From Alphaproteobacteria bacterium (GTDB taxonomy: Bacteria > Pseudomonadota > Alphaproteobacteria > Micropepsales > Micropepsaceae), in NCBI GenBank assembly GCA_028871345.1, contig JAGWNK010000009.1:1-64000 (forward strand): 64,000 bases of DNA, written 5' to 3'. Positions within the stretch are counted from its first letter, which is position 1. Every line of letters starts with the position of its first letter. A program made the position numbers and the translations under genes. Positions 47,930 to 54,575 of the stretch are shown piece by piece. The notes under the pieces are model-generated. The model was given only the letters and a program-made list of their open reading frames with translations, did no database searches and was not told the DNA's origin.

Positions 47930-49132
47930 ATGCTTCCCAGGCTTCTCAAACCGACACTTGAAAACCGGCTCAAGCAGTTTCCGGCCGTGGCATTGCTTGG
48001 CCCGCGCCAATCGGGAAAAACGACGCTCGCCCTCGAATTGGCCGAGGAGCGCAAGGACAAAGCCGTTTATCTCGATCTGGAGAATCCGGCCGACCGGCGG
48101 CGTCTCGACGATCCAGTCGCTTATCTCCGTGCCCAACGCGGGCGCTTGGTCATTCTCGACGAGATTCACCGTGTCCCCGAAATCTTTGCCGTCCTACGCG
48201 GCGAAATCGACGCAAGGCGGCGCGCTGGAGAAAAATCGGGACAATTCCTCATTCTCGGCTCTGCCGCGCTCGATCTCCTGCGGCAATCTTCCGAGAGCCT
48301 CGCGGGGCGGATCAGCTTCCTTGAACTCATGCCGTTCCAGCCGCAGGAAGTCCTACCCGTCGATGGTGTCGAAGCCGCCGACAAGCTATGGCTGCGCGGC
48401 GGATTCCCAAGCAGCTATCTCGCCGAAAACGATCAAGAAAGCAGCCTATGGCGTGCCTCCTTCATTCGCTCATACCTTGAACGAGACATTCCCCAATTCG
48501 GCGTTCGCATCCCGGCGGAAACCGTCGAGCGCTTTTGGACGATGCTCGCCCATACGCAGGGCGGGTTATTCAACGGCCATCGTCTCGCGCAAAGTCTCGG
48601 CGTCGGCTGGCACGCGGTTTCCCATTATCTCGGGCTTCTGGCGGACTTGATGCTTGTGCGGCGCTTGTCGCCATGGACGGCGAATGTCGGCAAGCGACTC
48701 GTTAAATCCCCCAAGATCTATTTACGAGACTCCGGCCTTTTGCATTCCCTGTTGAATCTGCCGACGTTGAACGACGTATTGGGCCATCCGATTGCCGGCG
48801 CAAGCTGGGAGGGATTTGCGATGGAGGCCATCATTGCCGCCGCGCCCGATGGAACCAAGCCCCATTTCTATCGCTCGGCAACGGGGCACGAGATCGACCT
48901 CGTGCTCGAATTGTCTGCATCGCGCCGTTGGGCGTTCGAATTCAAGAAATCGCTCTCGCCGAACGTCGAGAAAGGCTTTCACGTCGCAAGCGCGGACATA
49001 AAGGCCGAGCGTAAAATCCTCGTCTATCCGGGGCAAGACGCTTATCCCGGCACCGGCGGCGCGGAAGTCTTGCCGCTCCTCGACGCGGTCAAAGCCGTCG
49101 ATAAACCCGGTGCAAAGGCGGCAAAGCGATGA
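47930..49132 (+). CDS. AAA family ATPase with DUF4143
   Basis: 400 residues. N-terminal AAA_14 ATPase: Walker A ALLGPRQSGKTTLA near 22-35 and Walker B LVILDEIHRVPE; C-terminal DUF4143, a nuclease-like fold, with YLERDIPQFG, LAQSLGVGWHAVSHYLGLL and GHEIDLVLEL, EFKKS (D...ExK-like). These proteins are widespread in accessory DNA and of unknown role, perhaps defence or toxin-antitoxin-like. Low GC fits transfer. Confidence 0.85.
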   Translation: MLPRLLKPTLENRLKQFPAVALLGPRQSGKTTLALELAEERKDKAVYLDLENPADRRRLDDPVAYLRAQRGRLVILDEIHRVPEIFAVLRGEIDARRRAGEKSGQFLILGSAALDLLRQSSESLAGRISFLELMPFQPQEVLPVDGVEAADKLWLRGGFPSSYLAENDQESSLWRASFIRSYLERDIPQFGVRIPAETVERFWTMLAHTQGGLFNGHRLAQSLGVGWHAVSHYLGLLADLMLVRRLSPWTANVGKRLVKSPKIYLRDSGLLHSLLNLPTLNDVLGHPIAGASWEGFAMEAIIAAAPDGTKPHFYRSATGHEIDLVLELSASRRWAFEFKKSLSPNVEKGFHVASADIKAERKILVYPGQDAYPGTGGAEVLPLLDAVKAVDKPGAKAAKR

Positions 49133-50981: not shown

Positions 50982-51881
50982 TTATGAATCGGTCGACGAC
51001 TCGCGACCTTCCACCCACGCCCTGACCAGGTGATGGGCGATGGCGGCGGGGAACGGCCCGCGGCGGCCGGCCATCTTGCCGTCGAGCAGATCGCGCGCCT
51101 CGGCACGCGTCAGCCACACGGAGTCCACCAGCTCGTTGCCGTCGAGCGTCACCTCCGACCGCGCGCATTGCGCGAAGCATCCGATCATCAGCGAAGAGGG
51201 AAACGGCCAGGGCTGGCAGGCGTAATACGTCACTTCGCCCGCCGTCACGCCGGCTTCCTCGAACAGCTCGCGGCGCACCGCCTCTTCGAAGGTCTCGCCC
51301 GGCTCCACGAATCCCGCCAGCGCCGAATAGAAGTCCGCCCCCCACGCCTTGTTGCGCGCCAGAAGGCAGCGCTCGCCGCAGATCGCCAGCATGATCACCG
51401 CCGGATCGGTGCGCGGGAAATGCTCGGCGCCGCAGGGCGTGCAGATGCGCTTGTAGCCGGCATCGCCGGGCGTGGTCGGCGCCCCGCAGCGCGCGCAGAA
51501 GCCGTGCCGGGCATGCCAATCGATCATCGCTTTGGCCTGGCTGAGGATGGCGAGATCGCCGAGATCGAGCAGCGCCGCCGCGGCGCGCAGCTCGCGGAAC
51601 ACGCCGTGTGGGGCGAACCGCTCGGCCGCATCGCTGCACGCCGACACGTCCACCGCGAACAGTGCCGCTTCGCCCTCGAGGCCGAGGAACACCGACGGCG
51701 CGCCGGCGAATTCCTCCATCGCCCTAACCCGCGCGGCGCGCAGGACCGATTCGCCCGACACCAGCACCTGCAAGCGCGCCAGGGGCAGAATCAGTCCGCG
51801 CTGCCGCCGCTCGGCGATCCAGGCGGCATCCGCGCGCCGTTCGCTGGCGCGATTGAGGGGATTTCCGGTGAAAGGCAGCAT
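50982..51881 (-). CDS. nudC: NADH pyrophosphatase NudC
   Basis: 299 residues. Zinc ribbon CARCGAPTTPGD with CTPCG, then the Nudix box GFVEPGETFEEAVRRELFEEAG and the NudC-specific QPWPFPSSLM. It cleaves NAD(H) and removes NAD caps from RNA by family. It is divergent from the 30-residue membrane peptide gene. Confidence 0.95.
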   Translation of the reverse strand: MLPFTGNPLNRASERRADAAWIAERRQRGLILPLARLQVLVSGESVLRAARVRAMEEFAGAPSVFLGLEGEAALFAVDVSACSDAAERFAPHGVFRELRAAAALLDLGDLAILSQAKAMIDWHARHGFCARCGAPTTPGDAGYKRICTPCGAEHFPRTDPAVIMLAICGERCLLARNKAWGADFYSALAGFVEPGETFEEAVRRELFEEAGVTAGEVTYYACQPWPFPSSLMIGCFAQCARSEVTLDGNELVDSVWLTRAEARDLLDGKMAGRRGPFPAAIAHHLVRAWVEGRESSTDS

Positions 51882-52150: not shown

Positions 52151-52221
52151 CCGGTCAGGTCCGGAAGGGCGCGGCAGCGCGCGAGCGCCGTAACGATTGC
52201 GGTCCAGCCCGCAACCGCCGC
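52151..52221 (+). ncRNA. SRP RNA-like unit 1, 5'-truncated
   Basis: Starts at CCGGTCAGGTCC (GGTCAGG from 52153) and shares with units 2 and 3 the GGAAGG, a GC-rich hairpin 6 nt shorter than theirs, CGCCGTAACGATTGCGGTCC and CCGCCGC. The upstream 5' arm and promoter box are replaced by unrelated sequence, so it is probably not transcribed as an SRP-like RNA by itself. Confidence 0.55.
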
Positions 52222-52267
52222 TTTTGCCAGACTCGCCATCGGTGGACGCCTGCACTATATCCATCCC

Positions 52268-52377
52268 GGGAACCGGTGGTGGACGGACCGCTCGTGGGCG
52301 CGGTCAGGTCCGGAAGGGCGAGGGCGCGGCGGCGCGCGAGCGCCGTAACGATTGCGATCCAGCCCACAACCGCCGCC
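52268..52377 (+). ncRNA. SRP RNA-like unit 2 with altered apex
   Basis: Starts at GGGAACCGG 6 bp after a TATATC box (52256-52261). The 5' arm GGACCG, GGTCAGGTCC (52302) and GGAAGG match canonical ffs. Where ffs has AAGCAGCC, this copy has a hairpin with stems GGCG/CGCC and CGCG/CGCG, then GTAACGA as in ffs. The 3' arm ends CCGCCGCC, which can pair with GGTGGTGG (with two wobbles). One base of the inner helix is mismatched (GCGATCC). Confidence 0.6.
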
Positions 52378-52422
52378 TTTGCCAGACTCGCCATCGGTGG
52401 ACGCCTGCACTATATCCATCCC

Positions 52423-52532
52423 GGGAACCGGTGGTGGACGGACCGCTCGCCAACCCGGTCAGGTCCGGAAGGGCGAGAGCGCGACAGCGCGCGAGCGCCG
52501 TAACGATTGCGGTCCAGCCCACAGCCGCCGCC
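52423..52532 (+). ncRNA. SRP RNA-like unit 3 with altered apex
   Basis: 155 bp downstream of unit 2 and about 95% identical. GGACCGC/GCGGTCC, TCGCCAAC/GTAACGA and GGTGGTGG/CCGCCGCC can all form, so an SRP-like rod is still possible. The apical insert keeps its stem bases and differs from unit 2 only at loop positions (AGAG for AGGG, ACAG for GCGG). The Ffh-contact strand AGCA of canonical 4.5S RNA is absent. Confidence 0.6.
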
Positions 52533-52565
52533 TTTGCCAGACTCGCCATCCAGGGACGCCTGCAC

Positions 52566-52571
52566 TATATC
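52566..52571 (+). promoter_or_regulatory. -10 box of ffs
   Basis: TATATC, 6 bp before GGGAACCGG where the ffs stem begins. The same CACTATATCCATCCCGGG context is repeated exactly in front of units 2 (52256) and 3 (52411). I see only a weak -35 (TCGCCA, 17 bp upstream). Confidence 0.45.
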
Positions 52572-52577
52572 CATCCC

Positions 52578-52669
52578 GGGAACCGGTGGTGGACGGACCG
52601 CTCGCCAACCCGGTCAGGTCCGGAAGGAAGCAGCCGTAACGATTCCGGTCCGGGTTGCTGCCGGTTCCC
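52578..52669 (+). ncRNA. ffs: Signal recognition particle 4.5S RNA
   Basis: Canonical bacterial small SRP RNA: terminal stem GGGAACCGG/CCGGTTCCC, inner helices CGGACCG/CGGTCCG and TCGCCAAC/GTAACGA, and apex GGTCAGGTCC-GGAA-GGAAGCAGCC with the GNRA loop and the CAGG/AGCA internal loop that binds Ffh. It targets nascent membrane proteins with Ffh. The position 20 bp before dnaX is usual in several bacteria. It is the last and only canonical copy of the array. Confidence 0.95.
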
Positions 52670-52688
52670 ACCTCACACCGGGCGCGCG

Positions 52689-54512
52689 ATGGACGACACG
52701 GAACCTTCTCTGGGCCTCGGCGGCGAATACAAGGTCCTGGCGCGCAAATACCGCCCCTCCGATTTCACCGGCCTGATCGGCCAGGAGGCCTTGGTCCGCA
52801 CCCTCTCGAACGCCTTCGCCACGGGGCGCATCGCCCATGCCTTCATGCTCACCGGCGTGCGCGGCGTGGGCAAGACGACGACGGCGCGCATCATCGCCCG
52901 CGCCTTGAACTGCATCGGGCCCGACGGCAAACGCGGCGAGCCTTCCATCCAGCCCTGCGGCGTCTGCGAGCCCTGCGTCGCCATCGCCGAGAGCCGCCAT
53001 GTCGACGTGCAGGAGATGGACGCGGCCTCGCGCACCGGCATCGACGACGTGCGCGAGATCATCGAGGGCGTGCGTTACGCCCCGGCCTCGGCGCGCTACA
53101 AGGTCTACATCATCGACGAAGTGCACATGCTGTCCAAGCAGGCCTTCAACGGGCTCCTCAAGACGCTGGAGGAGCCGCCGCCGCACGTGAAGTTCGTCTT
53201 CGCCACCACCGAGATCCGCAAGGTGCCGGTGACGGTCCTGTCGCGCTGCCAGCGCTTCGACCTCAGGCGCATCGACACCCCCGAGCTCGCCGCCCATCTC
53301 GCCGCCGTCGCCGCCAAGGAGAACGTGGCGCTGGAGGAGCCGGCGCTCGGCCTGATTGCGCGGGCCGCCGAAGGCAGCGTGCGCGACGGGCTGTCGCTGC
53401 TCGACCAGGCGATCGCTCATGGCGAGGGTCCGATCACGGCGGAGGCGGTGCGCGCCATGCTGGGGCTGGCCGACCGCGGCCGCGTCCTCGACCTGTTCGA
53501 GAAGGTGATGGCGGGCGACGTCGCGGCGGCGCTTACGGGCCTCGGCGAGCTCTACGACCGCGGCGCCGATCCGCTTGCCGTGATGCAGGACCTGCTCGAG
53601 ATCACCCATTTCCTCACCCGCGTGAAGGTGGCCCCGGCCGCGCAAGGCTTCTTCGACGGCGGTTCGGGCGAAGCCGGGCGCGCCGCCGAGATGGCGGGCA
53701 GGCTTTCGGTGCCGTCGCTGACGCGGGCCTGGACCATGCTGTTGAAGGGCCTCTTCGAGGTGCGCGACGCGGCGCGCCCGGTGGCGGCCTGCGAGATGGC
53801 GCTCATCCGCCTCGCCTATGCCGCCGATCTTCCGCCCACGGACAAGCTGGTGCGCGAGGTGATGGACTCCTCCCGCCCCCCCCTTGAGGGCGGAGGGCGA
53901 TCAGCCGGCGCCCAGCAGGGCGGCGGCAGCCCGACATCCAAAACGCGCGGCGTTCTGGGGGAGGAGGCGAGTAGCAACAGCGTACGAGCGCGAAGCGCGG
54001 CCGGCGCCACGACGCACCCCTCCGCGAAATCTGCTTCACAGAGTTCGGCCCTGCCTCAAGGAGAGGGTGGGAATTTGGCCGTCGCTCCGCGGCAGGACAC
54101 CAACGAGCCCGCTCTGCGCACCCTCGAGGATCTCGCCGCCATGGCGCAGGCCAACGGCTCGCCGGTGCTCAAGGTGCACATCGAGAACGACGTCCACCTC
54201 GTGTCGCTCGAGCCGGGGCGGCTGGAATTCCGCCCCTCCGAGCGCGCGCCCAAGACGCTCGCCGCCGACCTGGCGCAGAAGCTGAAGGACTGGACGGGCA
54301 CGCGCTGGATCGTCACGGTGGCGCGCGAAGGCGGCGACCTCACCCTGGCCGAGCAGAAGAAGGCCGCCAGGGCCGCGCGCCACGAGCGCGTGCTGCAGGA
54401 ACCTCTGGTGCGCGCGGTGATGGACCGCTTCCCCGGCGCCGAGATCGTGAAGGTGCACGAAGTCGCCGGCGAAGGCTCCGCCGCCCCGCTGCCGGAAGCG
54501 GAAGAAGAATGA
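52689..54512 (+). CDS. dnaX: DNA polymerase III subunit gamma/tau, repeat inside
   Basis: 607 residues. AAA+ clamp loader: Walker A GVRGVGKTTTARIIARALNC, zinc cysteines (C, then CGVCEPC), Walker B IIDEVHMLSKQAFNGLLKTLEEPP and sensor-1 FATTEI. Domains I-III run to about 390; then residues about 396-462 are encoded by a copy of the dispersed palindromic repeat read in frame (PLEGGGRSAGAQQGGGSP, then LPQGEGG); tau-type C-terminal domain from about 465. The repeat lies in the natural linker, so function is probably kept. ATG 52689 fits family start MDDTEPSLG-KVLARKYRP; the frame stays open back into the ffs array but that is not coding. Confidence 0.95.
   Translation: MDDTEPSLGLGGEYKVLARKYRPSDFTGLIGQEALVRTLSNAFATGRIAHAFMLTGVRGVGKTTTARIIARALNCIGPDGKRGEPSIQPCGVCEPCVAIAESRHVDVQEMDAASRTGIDDVREIIEGVRYAPASARYKVYIIDEVHMLSKQAFNGLLKTLEEPPPHVKFVFATTEIRKVPVTVLSRCQRFDLRRIDTPELAAHLAAVAAKENVALEEPALGLIARAAEGSVRDGLSLLDQAIAHGEGPITAEAVRAMLGLADRGRVLDLFEKVMAGDVAAALTGLGELYDRGADPLAVMQDLLEITHFLTRVKVAPAAQGFFDGGSGEAGRAAEMAGRLSVPSLTRAWTMLLKGLFEVRDAARPVAACEMALIRLAYAADLPPTDKLVREVMDSSRPPLEGGGRSAGAQQGGGSPTSKTRGVLGEEASSNSVRARSAAGATTHPSAKSASQSSALPQGEGGNLAVAPRQDTNEPALRTLEDLAAMAQANGSPVLKVHIENDVHLVSLEPGRLEFRPSERAPKTLAADLAQKLKDWTGTRWIVTVAREGGDLTLAEQKKAARAARHERVLQEPLVRAVMDRFPGAEIVKVHEVAGEGSAAPLPEAEEE
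53875..54075. repeat. Palindromic repeat inserted in dnaX
   Basis: About 200 bp of composite repeat: CCCCCCCTTGAGGGCGGAGGG, a GGGGGAGGAGGCGAGTAGCAA-type stretch with CAGCGTACGAG, and CCTGCCTCAAGGAGAGGG. The CGAG-AGC-AC-GCGTACGAGC part matches the intergenic copy at 15110-15143. It is read in frame in dnaX. This is the pattern of Rickettsia-type palindromic elements in coding regions. Confidence 0.75.
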
Positions 54513-54514
54513 GA

Positions 54515-54575
54515 GCGCCTTCCCCTTGTGGGGAGGTCGAAAAACGCGCAGCGTTTTTCGGGTGGGGGGAGAAAT
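54515..54575. repeat. Dispersed palindromic repeat, dnaX-recR gap
   Basis: CCTTCCCCTTGTGGGGAGGTCG, AAAAACGC/GCGTTTTT, GGGTGGGGGGAG: one clean unit. In many bacteria ybaB/ebfC lies between dnaX and recR; here there is only this repeat. Confidence 0.7.

What the first reader, a model, noticed from the sequence alone, without database searches (positions are those of the whole stretch)
52151..52669. Array of SRP RNA-like units with hairpin-replaced apex ahead of ffs
Canonical ffs (52578-52669) is preceded by two full units at exact 155-bp steps (starts 52268, 52423) and one 5'-truncated unit. Each full unit repeats the TATATC box, the GGGAACCGG 5' arm, GGACCG and GGTCAGGTCC-GGAAGG. They lack the AGCA strand that contacts Ffh; instead they carry a hairpin with stems GGCG/CGCC and CGCG/CGCG. 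Between units 2 and 3 all three differences in this hairpin fall in loop positions, and alternative 3' pairings (GCGGTCC, CCGCCGCC) keep a rod possible. These could be SRP RNA paralogues, decoys or regulators of ffs/dnaX; simple decay is the null model. I know of no described case.
Basis: partly seen in the sequence, partly recalled or inferred. Interest (0 to 1): 0.85.

Follow-up and report, generated by a model that had tools for sequence, protein, structure and literature searches.

The report
Palindromic repeats inside partial ffs copies
The odd SRP-RNA-like units look like partial tandem copies of the SRP RNA gene whose tip was replaced by a small hairpin repeat; related repeats are scattered through relatives' genomes and also sit in broken tRNA gene copies, so these are more likely relics of a mobile hairpin beside an intact gene than a new kind of SRP RNA.

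Summary
The array is real: units at exact 155-bp steps precede an intact ffs, the only one passing Rfam's SRP RNA cut-off. Each unit's apex is replaced by a hairpin module, GGYGAG-hairpin-CGARCGCCG.

In the genus (Rhizomicrobium) 15 of 62 genomes with a located ffs carry such a unit, up- or downstream of ffs, scattered on a dnaX tree. Hairpins differ but mostly stay paired, so this is not plain decay.

The module is not ffs-specific. A model built from ten copies away from ffs matches in 42 of 69 genus genomes (up to 41 copies). It re-finds the ffs-linked module in 10 of 15 genomes, the window's only weakly, and misses five, four of them in the window's clade. A short form typical of that clade is dispersed too (45 places, 22 genomes, no control match). 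Other copies interrupt partial duplicates of tRNA-Ala, tRNA-Arg and tRNA-Val beside the intact gene, sometimes as arrays: the architecture seen here.

Best explanation: a small palindromic repeat, comparable to Rickettsia palindromic elements and REPs, caught in partial duplicates of ffs, then amplified by recombination. SRP paralogue or decoy function is unsupported but not excluded. How insertion and flank duplication are coupled is inferred.

The parts
52151..52267 (+). Unit 1, 5'-truncated: ffs core CCCGGTCAGGTCCGGAAGG, shortened hairpin module, then GCCGTAACGATT and the promoter-like spacer of unit 2
   Evidence: R1 match 52154-52196, 45.8 bits (unit 1 was not in the R1 alignment)
52268..52422 (+). 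Unit 2: ffs 5' half, core, hairpin module, CCGTAACGATT, spacer with the next promoter-like box
   Evidence: R1 match 52303-52351, 65.8 bits, by construction
52317..52345 (+). Hairpin module of unit 2 (GGCGAG-hairpin-CGAGCGCCG) in place of the AAGCAG strand of ffs
   Evidence: R2 (built from copies outside ffs) E 0.6 only, below a chance-like match elsewhere in the window
52423..52577 (+). Unit 3: first 49 nt identical to ffs, core, hairpin module, spacer with the ffs promoter-like box
   Evidence: RF00169 only 15.5 bits
52472..52500 (+). Hairpin module of unit 3
   Evidence: R2 E 0.017
52256..52261 (+). TATATC box before unit 2; repeated at 52411-52416 and 52566-52571
   Evidence: read from the sequence
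52578..52672 (+). ffs, intact small bacterial SRP RNA gene
   Evidence: RF00169, 59.9 bits, gathering 40
53966..54004 (+). Another copy of the short palindromic repeat, in the dnaX linker; the pattern match itself covers 53966-53991, the rest is read by eye
   Evidence: pattern matches; linker stretch mostly absent from nine aligned relatives
52689..54512 (+). dnaX, downstream neighbour of ffs (gene name recalled)
   Evidence: ORF; a dnaX match in 57 of 62 oriented loci, window included
50982..51881 (-). Nudix/NudC-like ORF (name recalled), upstream neighbour
   Evidence: ORF; a relative in 33 of 62 oriented loci, window included

Best explanation
The units are partial tandem duplicates of ffs (spacer plus 5' half in upstream units, 3' half in downstream units). 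A small dispersed palindromic repeat, GGYGAG-hairpin-CGARCGCCG with a second hairpin in complete copies, was inserted at, or substituted for, the apex of the copy. Shown: the hairpin family and its dispersal, the same architecture at tRNA genes, an intact gene next to the interrupted copy in every ffs and tRNA case examined, patchy distribution. Inferred: the interrupted copy is tolerated because an intact essential copy stays next to it; in most units the second hairpin and the AAGCAG strand were lost by deletion between GCCG words, G057 keeping a longer form that ends in AGCAGCC; in the window, crossing-over between repeats raised the array to three units. The promoter-like boxes may still fire, but no SRP function of the units is needed to explain them.
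For: R2, built from ten copies away from ffs, matches at E <= 0.01 in 42 of 69 genus genomes, up to 41 copies in G048 (training copies included, E-values rough). It re-finds the ffs-linked module in 10 of 15 genomes: E 1.6e-10, 2.2e-9, 4.3e-9, 9.4e-9, 1.6e-5, 1.6e-5, 2.7e-5, 2.0e-4, 0.015 and the window's unit 3 at 0.017. The window-clade short form occurs at 45 places in 22 of 69 genomes, up to three mismatches, with no reversed-pattern match in any; two are in the window's genome, one in dnaX; the hairpin of the G026 ffs unit is letter for letter that of copies in G039 away from ffs. Same architecture at tRNA-Ala(CGC), at tRNA-Arg with an exact 72-bp flank duplicate and at tRNA-Val, five tandem units, in another family. 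Local duplication beside 10 of 65 elements against 1 of 514 matched control positions; 6 of these 10 overlap an intact tRNA gene (same loci). Unit-bearing rows scattered on the dnaX tree, 11 changes at least among 53 rows.
Against: R2 misses the ffs-linked module at E <= 1 in 5 of 15 genomes (G054, G039, G033, G026, G010), four of them near the window in the tree. In the window a match at 48499-48550 inside an ORF, taken as chance, scores better (E 0.12) than unit 2 (0.6); in G000 R2 has no match at E <= 0.01. For the window the link thus rests mainly on the short form and on shared flanks. Only two short-form copies were found in its genome. No transposase was identified. The same segment is replaced in most ffs units, and in G102 and G031 the 5' halves of unit and ffs differ clearly, which fits an old duplicate. 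Of the 10 duplications, L262 is element beside element and L220 does not touch the element, leaving 8. The flank pattern alone is unspecific (G000 23 matches, 9 control).
Confidence: 0.72

Rival explanations
1. The units encode functional SRP RNA variants or decoys whose apex was remodelled to lose Ffh binding or to bind something else.
For: The GGAA hairpin and GGTCAGG core are kept in most units, with UCC/GGG and UCG/CGG forms; promoter-like boxes persist; units occur in 15 genomes.
Against: Related modules dispersed elsewhere; units lack much of one half of ffs; weak folding and different structures for units 2 and 3; patchy distribution; not found in the 380 class genomes outside the genus that were drawn (E <= 1e-4, strict filters).
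Confidence: 0.09
2. The array is kept because each copy adds a promoter in front of ffs and raises or tunes ffs-dnaX transcription.
For: Each full unit repeats the TATATC box and spacer; the array is tandem and in the sense direction.
Against: Five genomes carry the unit downstream of ffs without the 5' half and spacer; nothing here measures transcription.
Confidence: 0.08
3. One ancestral insertion into an ancient ffs duplicate, then vertical descent with many losses and hairpin turnover, without further mobility at ffs.
For: Same replaced segment in most units; sister pairs G026/G010 and G039/G033 share units; in G102 and G031 unit and ffs have different 5' halves, and the downstream units of G059, G056, G057 and G017 end in a GGGCTCTC type that differs from their own ffs.
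Against: In G028, G054 and the window, spacer and 5' half of unit and ffs are near-identical within the genome and differ between genomes; upstream and downstream forms both exist.
Confidence: 0.25
4. Plain decay of duplicated ffs genes, the hairpin being a chance product.
For: Units are incomplete and below the SRP RNA cut-off.
Against: Same flanks and paired stem changes across genomes and in copies outside ffs.
Confidence: 0.03

Closest known systems
Rickettsia palindromic elements (RPE)
   Same: Small palindromic repeats in an alphaproteobacterium, intergenic, in frame in protein genes and in stable RNA genes (tmRNA and RNase P RNA, per passages of the review PMC2229807).
   Different: Sequences were not compared; here the interrupted RNA genes are partial duplicates beside an intact gene, sometimes in arrays.
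REP repeats, GTAG- and CGTC-tagged (PMC3733652, passages)
   Same: Short stem-loops, heterogeneous stems, many copies, alphaproteobacterial hosts (CGTC type), intragenic copies.
   Different: No GTAG or CGTC tag in the conserved flanks of the ten aligned copies; Y1 transposase genes do not follow copy number.
Partial tRNA copies left by integrative elements (PMC9897764, passages)
   Same: A partial and an intact RNA gene copy flank an element.
   Different: There about 9-23 kb of integrated DNA; here an element of about 50-110 bp in which no gene was noticed.
Bacterial small SRP RNA (RF00169)
   Same: 5' half and GGAA core derive from ffs.
   Different: Much of one half and the AAGCAG strand are missing; below gathering score.

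Membership tests
Bacteria_small_SRP (RF00169) | covariance model score at or above gathering | tested here: not met
   only ffs passes (59.9 bits); unit 3 15.5 bits
Bacteria_small_SRP (RF00169) | symmetric-loop strand AGCA for Ffh (role recalled) | tested here: not met
   replaced by the hairpin in the three window units
Bacteria_small_SRP (RF00169) | Ffh binding | not testable with these tools
   needs biochemistry
dispersed palindromic repeat found here | GGYGAG-stem-CGARCGCCG with paired stem changes | tested here: met
   alignment and pair counts
dispersed palindromic repeat found here | match to a model built without ffs copies | tested here: inconclusive
   10 of 15 unit-bearing genomes match at E < 0.02, 5 do not; window 0.017 and 0.6
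dispersed palindromic repeat found here | copies outside ffs in the same genome | tested here: met
   two short-form copies in G000, with 2 and 3 mismatches
REP (GTAG/CGTC) | unpaired GTAG or CGTC tag at one end of the stem | tested here: not met
   conserved flanks are GGTGAG and CGAACGCCG
REP (GTAG/CGTC) | association with RAYT transposase | tested here: inconclusive
   PF01797 in 18 of 69 genomes; absent from G048, G055, G056, G106, G102, present in G008 and G014, all copy-rich; flanking by repeats was not tested
Rickettsia palindromic elements | sequence similarity to RPE families | not tested
   no RPE sequence was compared

The most novel reading that the evidence does not exclude
A small palindromic element that enters the loops of structured RNA genes by a process coupled to duplication of about 50-115 bp of one flank. 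Insertion then regenerates an intact gene in the same event, so essential tRNA and SRP RNA genes become safe targets and seeds of tandem arrays.
Probability: 0.25. Interest if true: 0.75.

Novelty: new variant of a known kind. Interest (0 to 1): 0.48.

Why it matters
It explains a striking SRP-RNA-like array without inventing a new RNA, and it describes a repeat family that marks interrupted partial copies of essential RNA genes in alphaproteobacteria. If duplication and insertion are one event, it would be an unusual way for a short element to hit essential genes without killing the cell. It also warns that paired changes in a stem can come from a mobile palindrome and not from function of the host RNA.

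Tried and rejected
Flank pattern GGYGAG-N-CGARCGCCG over 69 genomes: unspecific, the listed matches look mostly coding and the reversed control is high; not used for counts. Y1 transposase as the mover: presence does not follow copy number. R1 over 385 class genomes: units in two genomes, both of the genus. A hammerhead- or kink-turn-like reading of the GA/GAA internal loop was considered by eye and dropped. R2 match 48499-48550 in the window lies in an ORF and was taken as chance, although it scores above unit 2. Alignments A3 and A4 misplaced the short hairpins; R2 was therefore built from ten long copies, leaving out of the 20 fetched the short L158, L159, L160, the similar L165, L168, L175 and the weak, coding-like or differently matched L170, L171, L176, L177; five of the ten lie at tRNA-Ala. 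Of 57 loci with dnaX, four were dropped before the tree (short or reversed match), among them none with a unit. The flank-duplication test gave elements more query (60 plus 120 bp) than controls (60 bp); one search repeated it with matched controls and without L284, the same locus as L226; three of the 29 best-of-genome loci (L232, L234, L237) gave no element. The sample is biased to high-scoring copies and to seven copy-rich genomes. Searches took the unit for ffs in G010; one search corrected it. One search used a wrong dnaX frame with its stops dropped from the query; one search corrected it.

Papers: only search listings; passages for PMC3733652, PMC2229807, PMC9897764. These listings showed no ffs array of this kind, but most subscription journals are not held.

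Full report
Observation. The 155-bp units, their phase and their similarity to ffs are as described. Only the gene at 52578-52672 passes Rfam's SRP RNA cut-off; unit 3 scores 15.5 bits. Units 2 and 3 carry the spacer with TATATC, the 5' half of ffs and the core GGTCAGGTCCGGAAGG, then the hairpin, then GCCGTAACGATT with a few more bases like the ffs 3' side, and run into the next spacer. The first 49 nt of unit 3 equal those of ffs, so the duplication or a conversion is recent. Folding of the units is close to shuffled sequence and differs between the two.

Relatives. The collection holds 69 genomes of the genus. Two contigs of equal length and position tie handles to named records: G039:C6 (375,169 bases) to Rhizomicrobium electricum DSM 21034 and G026:C153 (8,521 bases) to a Rhizomicrobium MAG. 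RF00169 passes its cut-off in 62 of 69. I fetched the flanks of the 61 genes other than the window's. Altered-apex units lie upstream of ffs in ten genomes (G000, G010, G026, G028, G031, G033, G039, G048, G054, G102; those of G026, G033 and G039 are degenerate in the 5' half) and downstream in five (G017, G040, G056, G057, G059); G017 also keeps a remnant upstream. R1 gives 39 bits or more in these 15 of 69 genomes, by construction for all but G057, which was not in its alignment. On a dnaX tree of 53 rows, many forks open, the 14 unit-bearing rows need at least 11 changes; G028 is absent because its fetched locus shows no dnaX match.

The hairpin. Across 15 aligned modules the flanks hold while the hairpin stem changes on both sides at four of five pairs; the outer helix shows none. 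84.8% of cells pair against 78.7% after shuffling; the control slid by -2 has as many both-side changes, so this statistic alone is modest.

A dispersed repeat. R1 also matched places with no ffs core. R2, from ten such copies alone, finds the family in 42 of 69 genus genomes at E <= 0.01: 41 copies in G048, 29 in G106, 28 in G008, 23 in G055, 20 in G102, none in G000. In one search it matches the ffs-linked modules of eight genomes at E <= 2e-4, of G040 at 0.015 and of the window at 0.017 (unit 3) and 0.6 (unit 2); it misses G054, G039, G033, G026 and G010 at E <= 1, and an ORF match in the window scores 0.12. For the window lineage a short form, up to three mismatches, occurs at 45 places in 22 of 69 genomes, one of them the G026 ffs unit, none for the reversed pattern; two are in the window's genome, one inside dnaX in a linker stretch mostly absent from nine relatives. 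The G026 ffs hairpin core is identical to copies in a G039 array away from ffs. Outside the genus R2 matches in 8 of 380 class genomes at E <= 1e-4 (10 of 385 in all, five of the 385 being listed as of the genus).

Same architecture at other RNA genes. In G040, G048, G055, G056, G057, G103, G106 and G107 copies interrupt a partial tRNA-Ala(CGC) beside the intact gene, on the opposite strand; most breaks follow GAGCG or GAAC. In G008 a 72-bp stretch with the start of tRNA-Arg is repeated exactly on both sides of an element lying on the tRNA's strand. In G014 element plus about 114 bp of tRNA-Ala flank occurs twice before the intact gene. In G286, of another family, five units of about 110 bp follow tRNA-Val(GAC), each with the T-loop side replaced by the hairpin. 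With matched controls, 10 of 65 elements against 1 of 514 control positions show a local duplicate of at least 30 bp and 90%; six of the ten overlap an intact tRNA gene, one (L262) is element beside element and one (L220) does not touch the element. L273 lies at a stem-loop and L290 in what looks like a protein gene's end, so RNA genes are not the only targets. Most sampled elements (55 of 65) show no such duplicate.

Mechanism. Most likely: partial tandem duplication of an essential RNA gene and insertion of the repeat in the spare copy, by way of short shared words (GAACG, GCCG), followed by deletion between GCCG words and unequal crossing-over. G057 keeps element sequence followed by an intact AGCAGCCGTAACGAA, which fits an insertion not yet trimmed. 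Whether duplication precedes or accompanies insertion, and whether ffs was hit once or often, is open.

Known kinds. RPE in tmRNA and RNase P RNA genes are the nearest precedent; REPs are similar but tagged and partly RAYT-linked. I saw no description of this family or of ffs arrays in the listings of searches, which cover open-licence papers only.

Noticed in passing
54514-54569: GC-rich hairpins just after dnaX give sub-threshold matches to whalefall-1 (22.5 bits, gathering 37) and CRISPR-DR57 (20.2, gathering 39); perhaps another palindromic repeat.
   Followed up: no
L241 1159-1669: In R. electricum (G039) a 142-bp tandem array holding the short palindrome lies beyond a tRNA-Ala(GGC) gene at 845-920; a stretch before it reads N.
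   Followed up: partly
L315 1-650: In G286, another alphaproteobacterial family, five tandem units of tRNA-Val fragment plus hairpin follow the intact tRNA-Val(GAC).
   Followed up: partly
53966-54004: Palindromic repeat inside the dnaX ORF of the window, in a linker stretch mostly absent from nine relatives.
   Followed up: partly
L290 (reverse strand) 639-847: About 62 bp, 95% identical, on both sides of one element copy, in what looks like the end of a protein gene.
   Followed up: no
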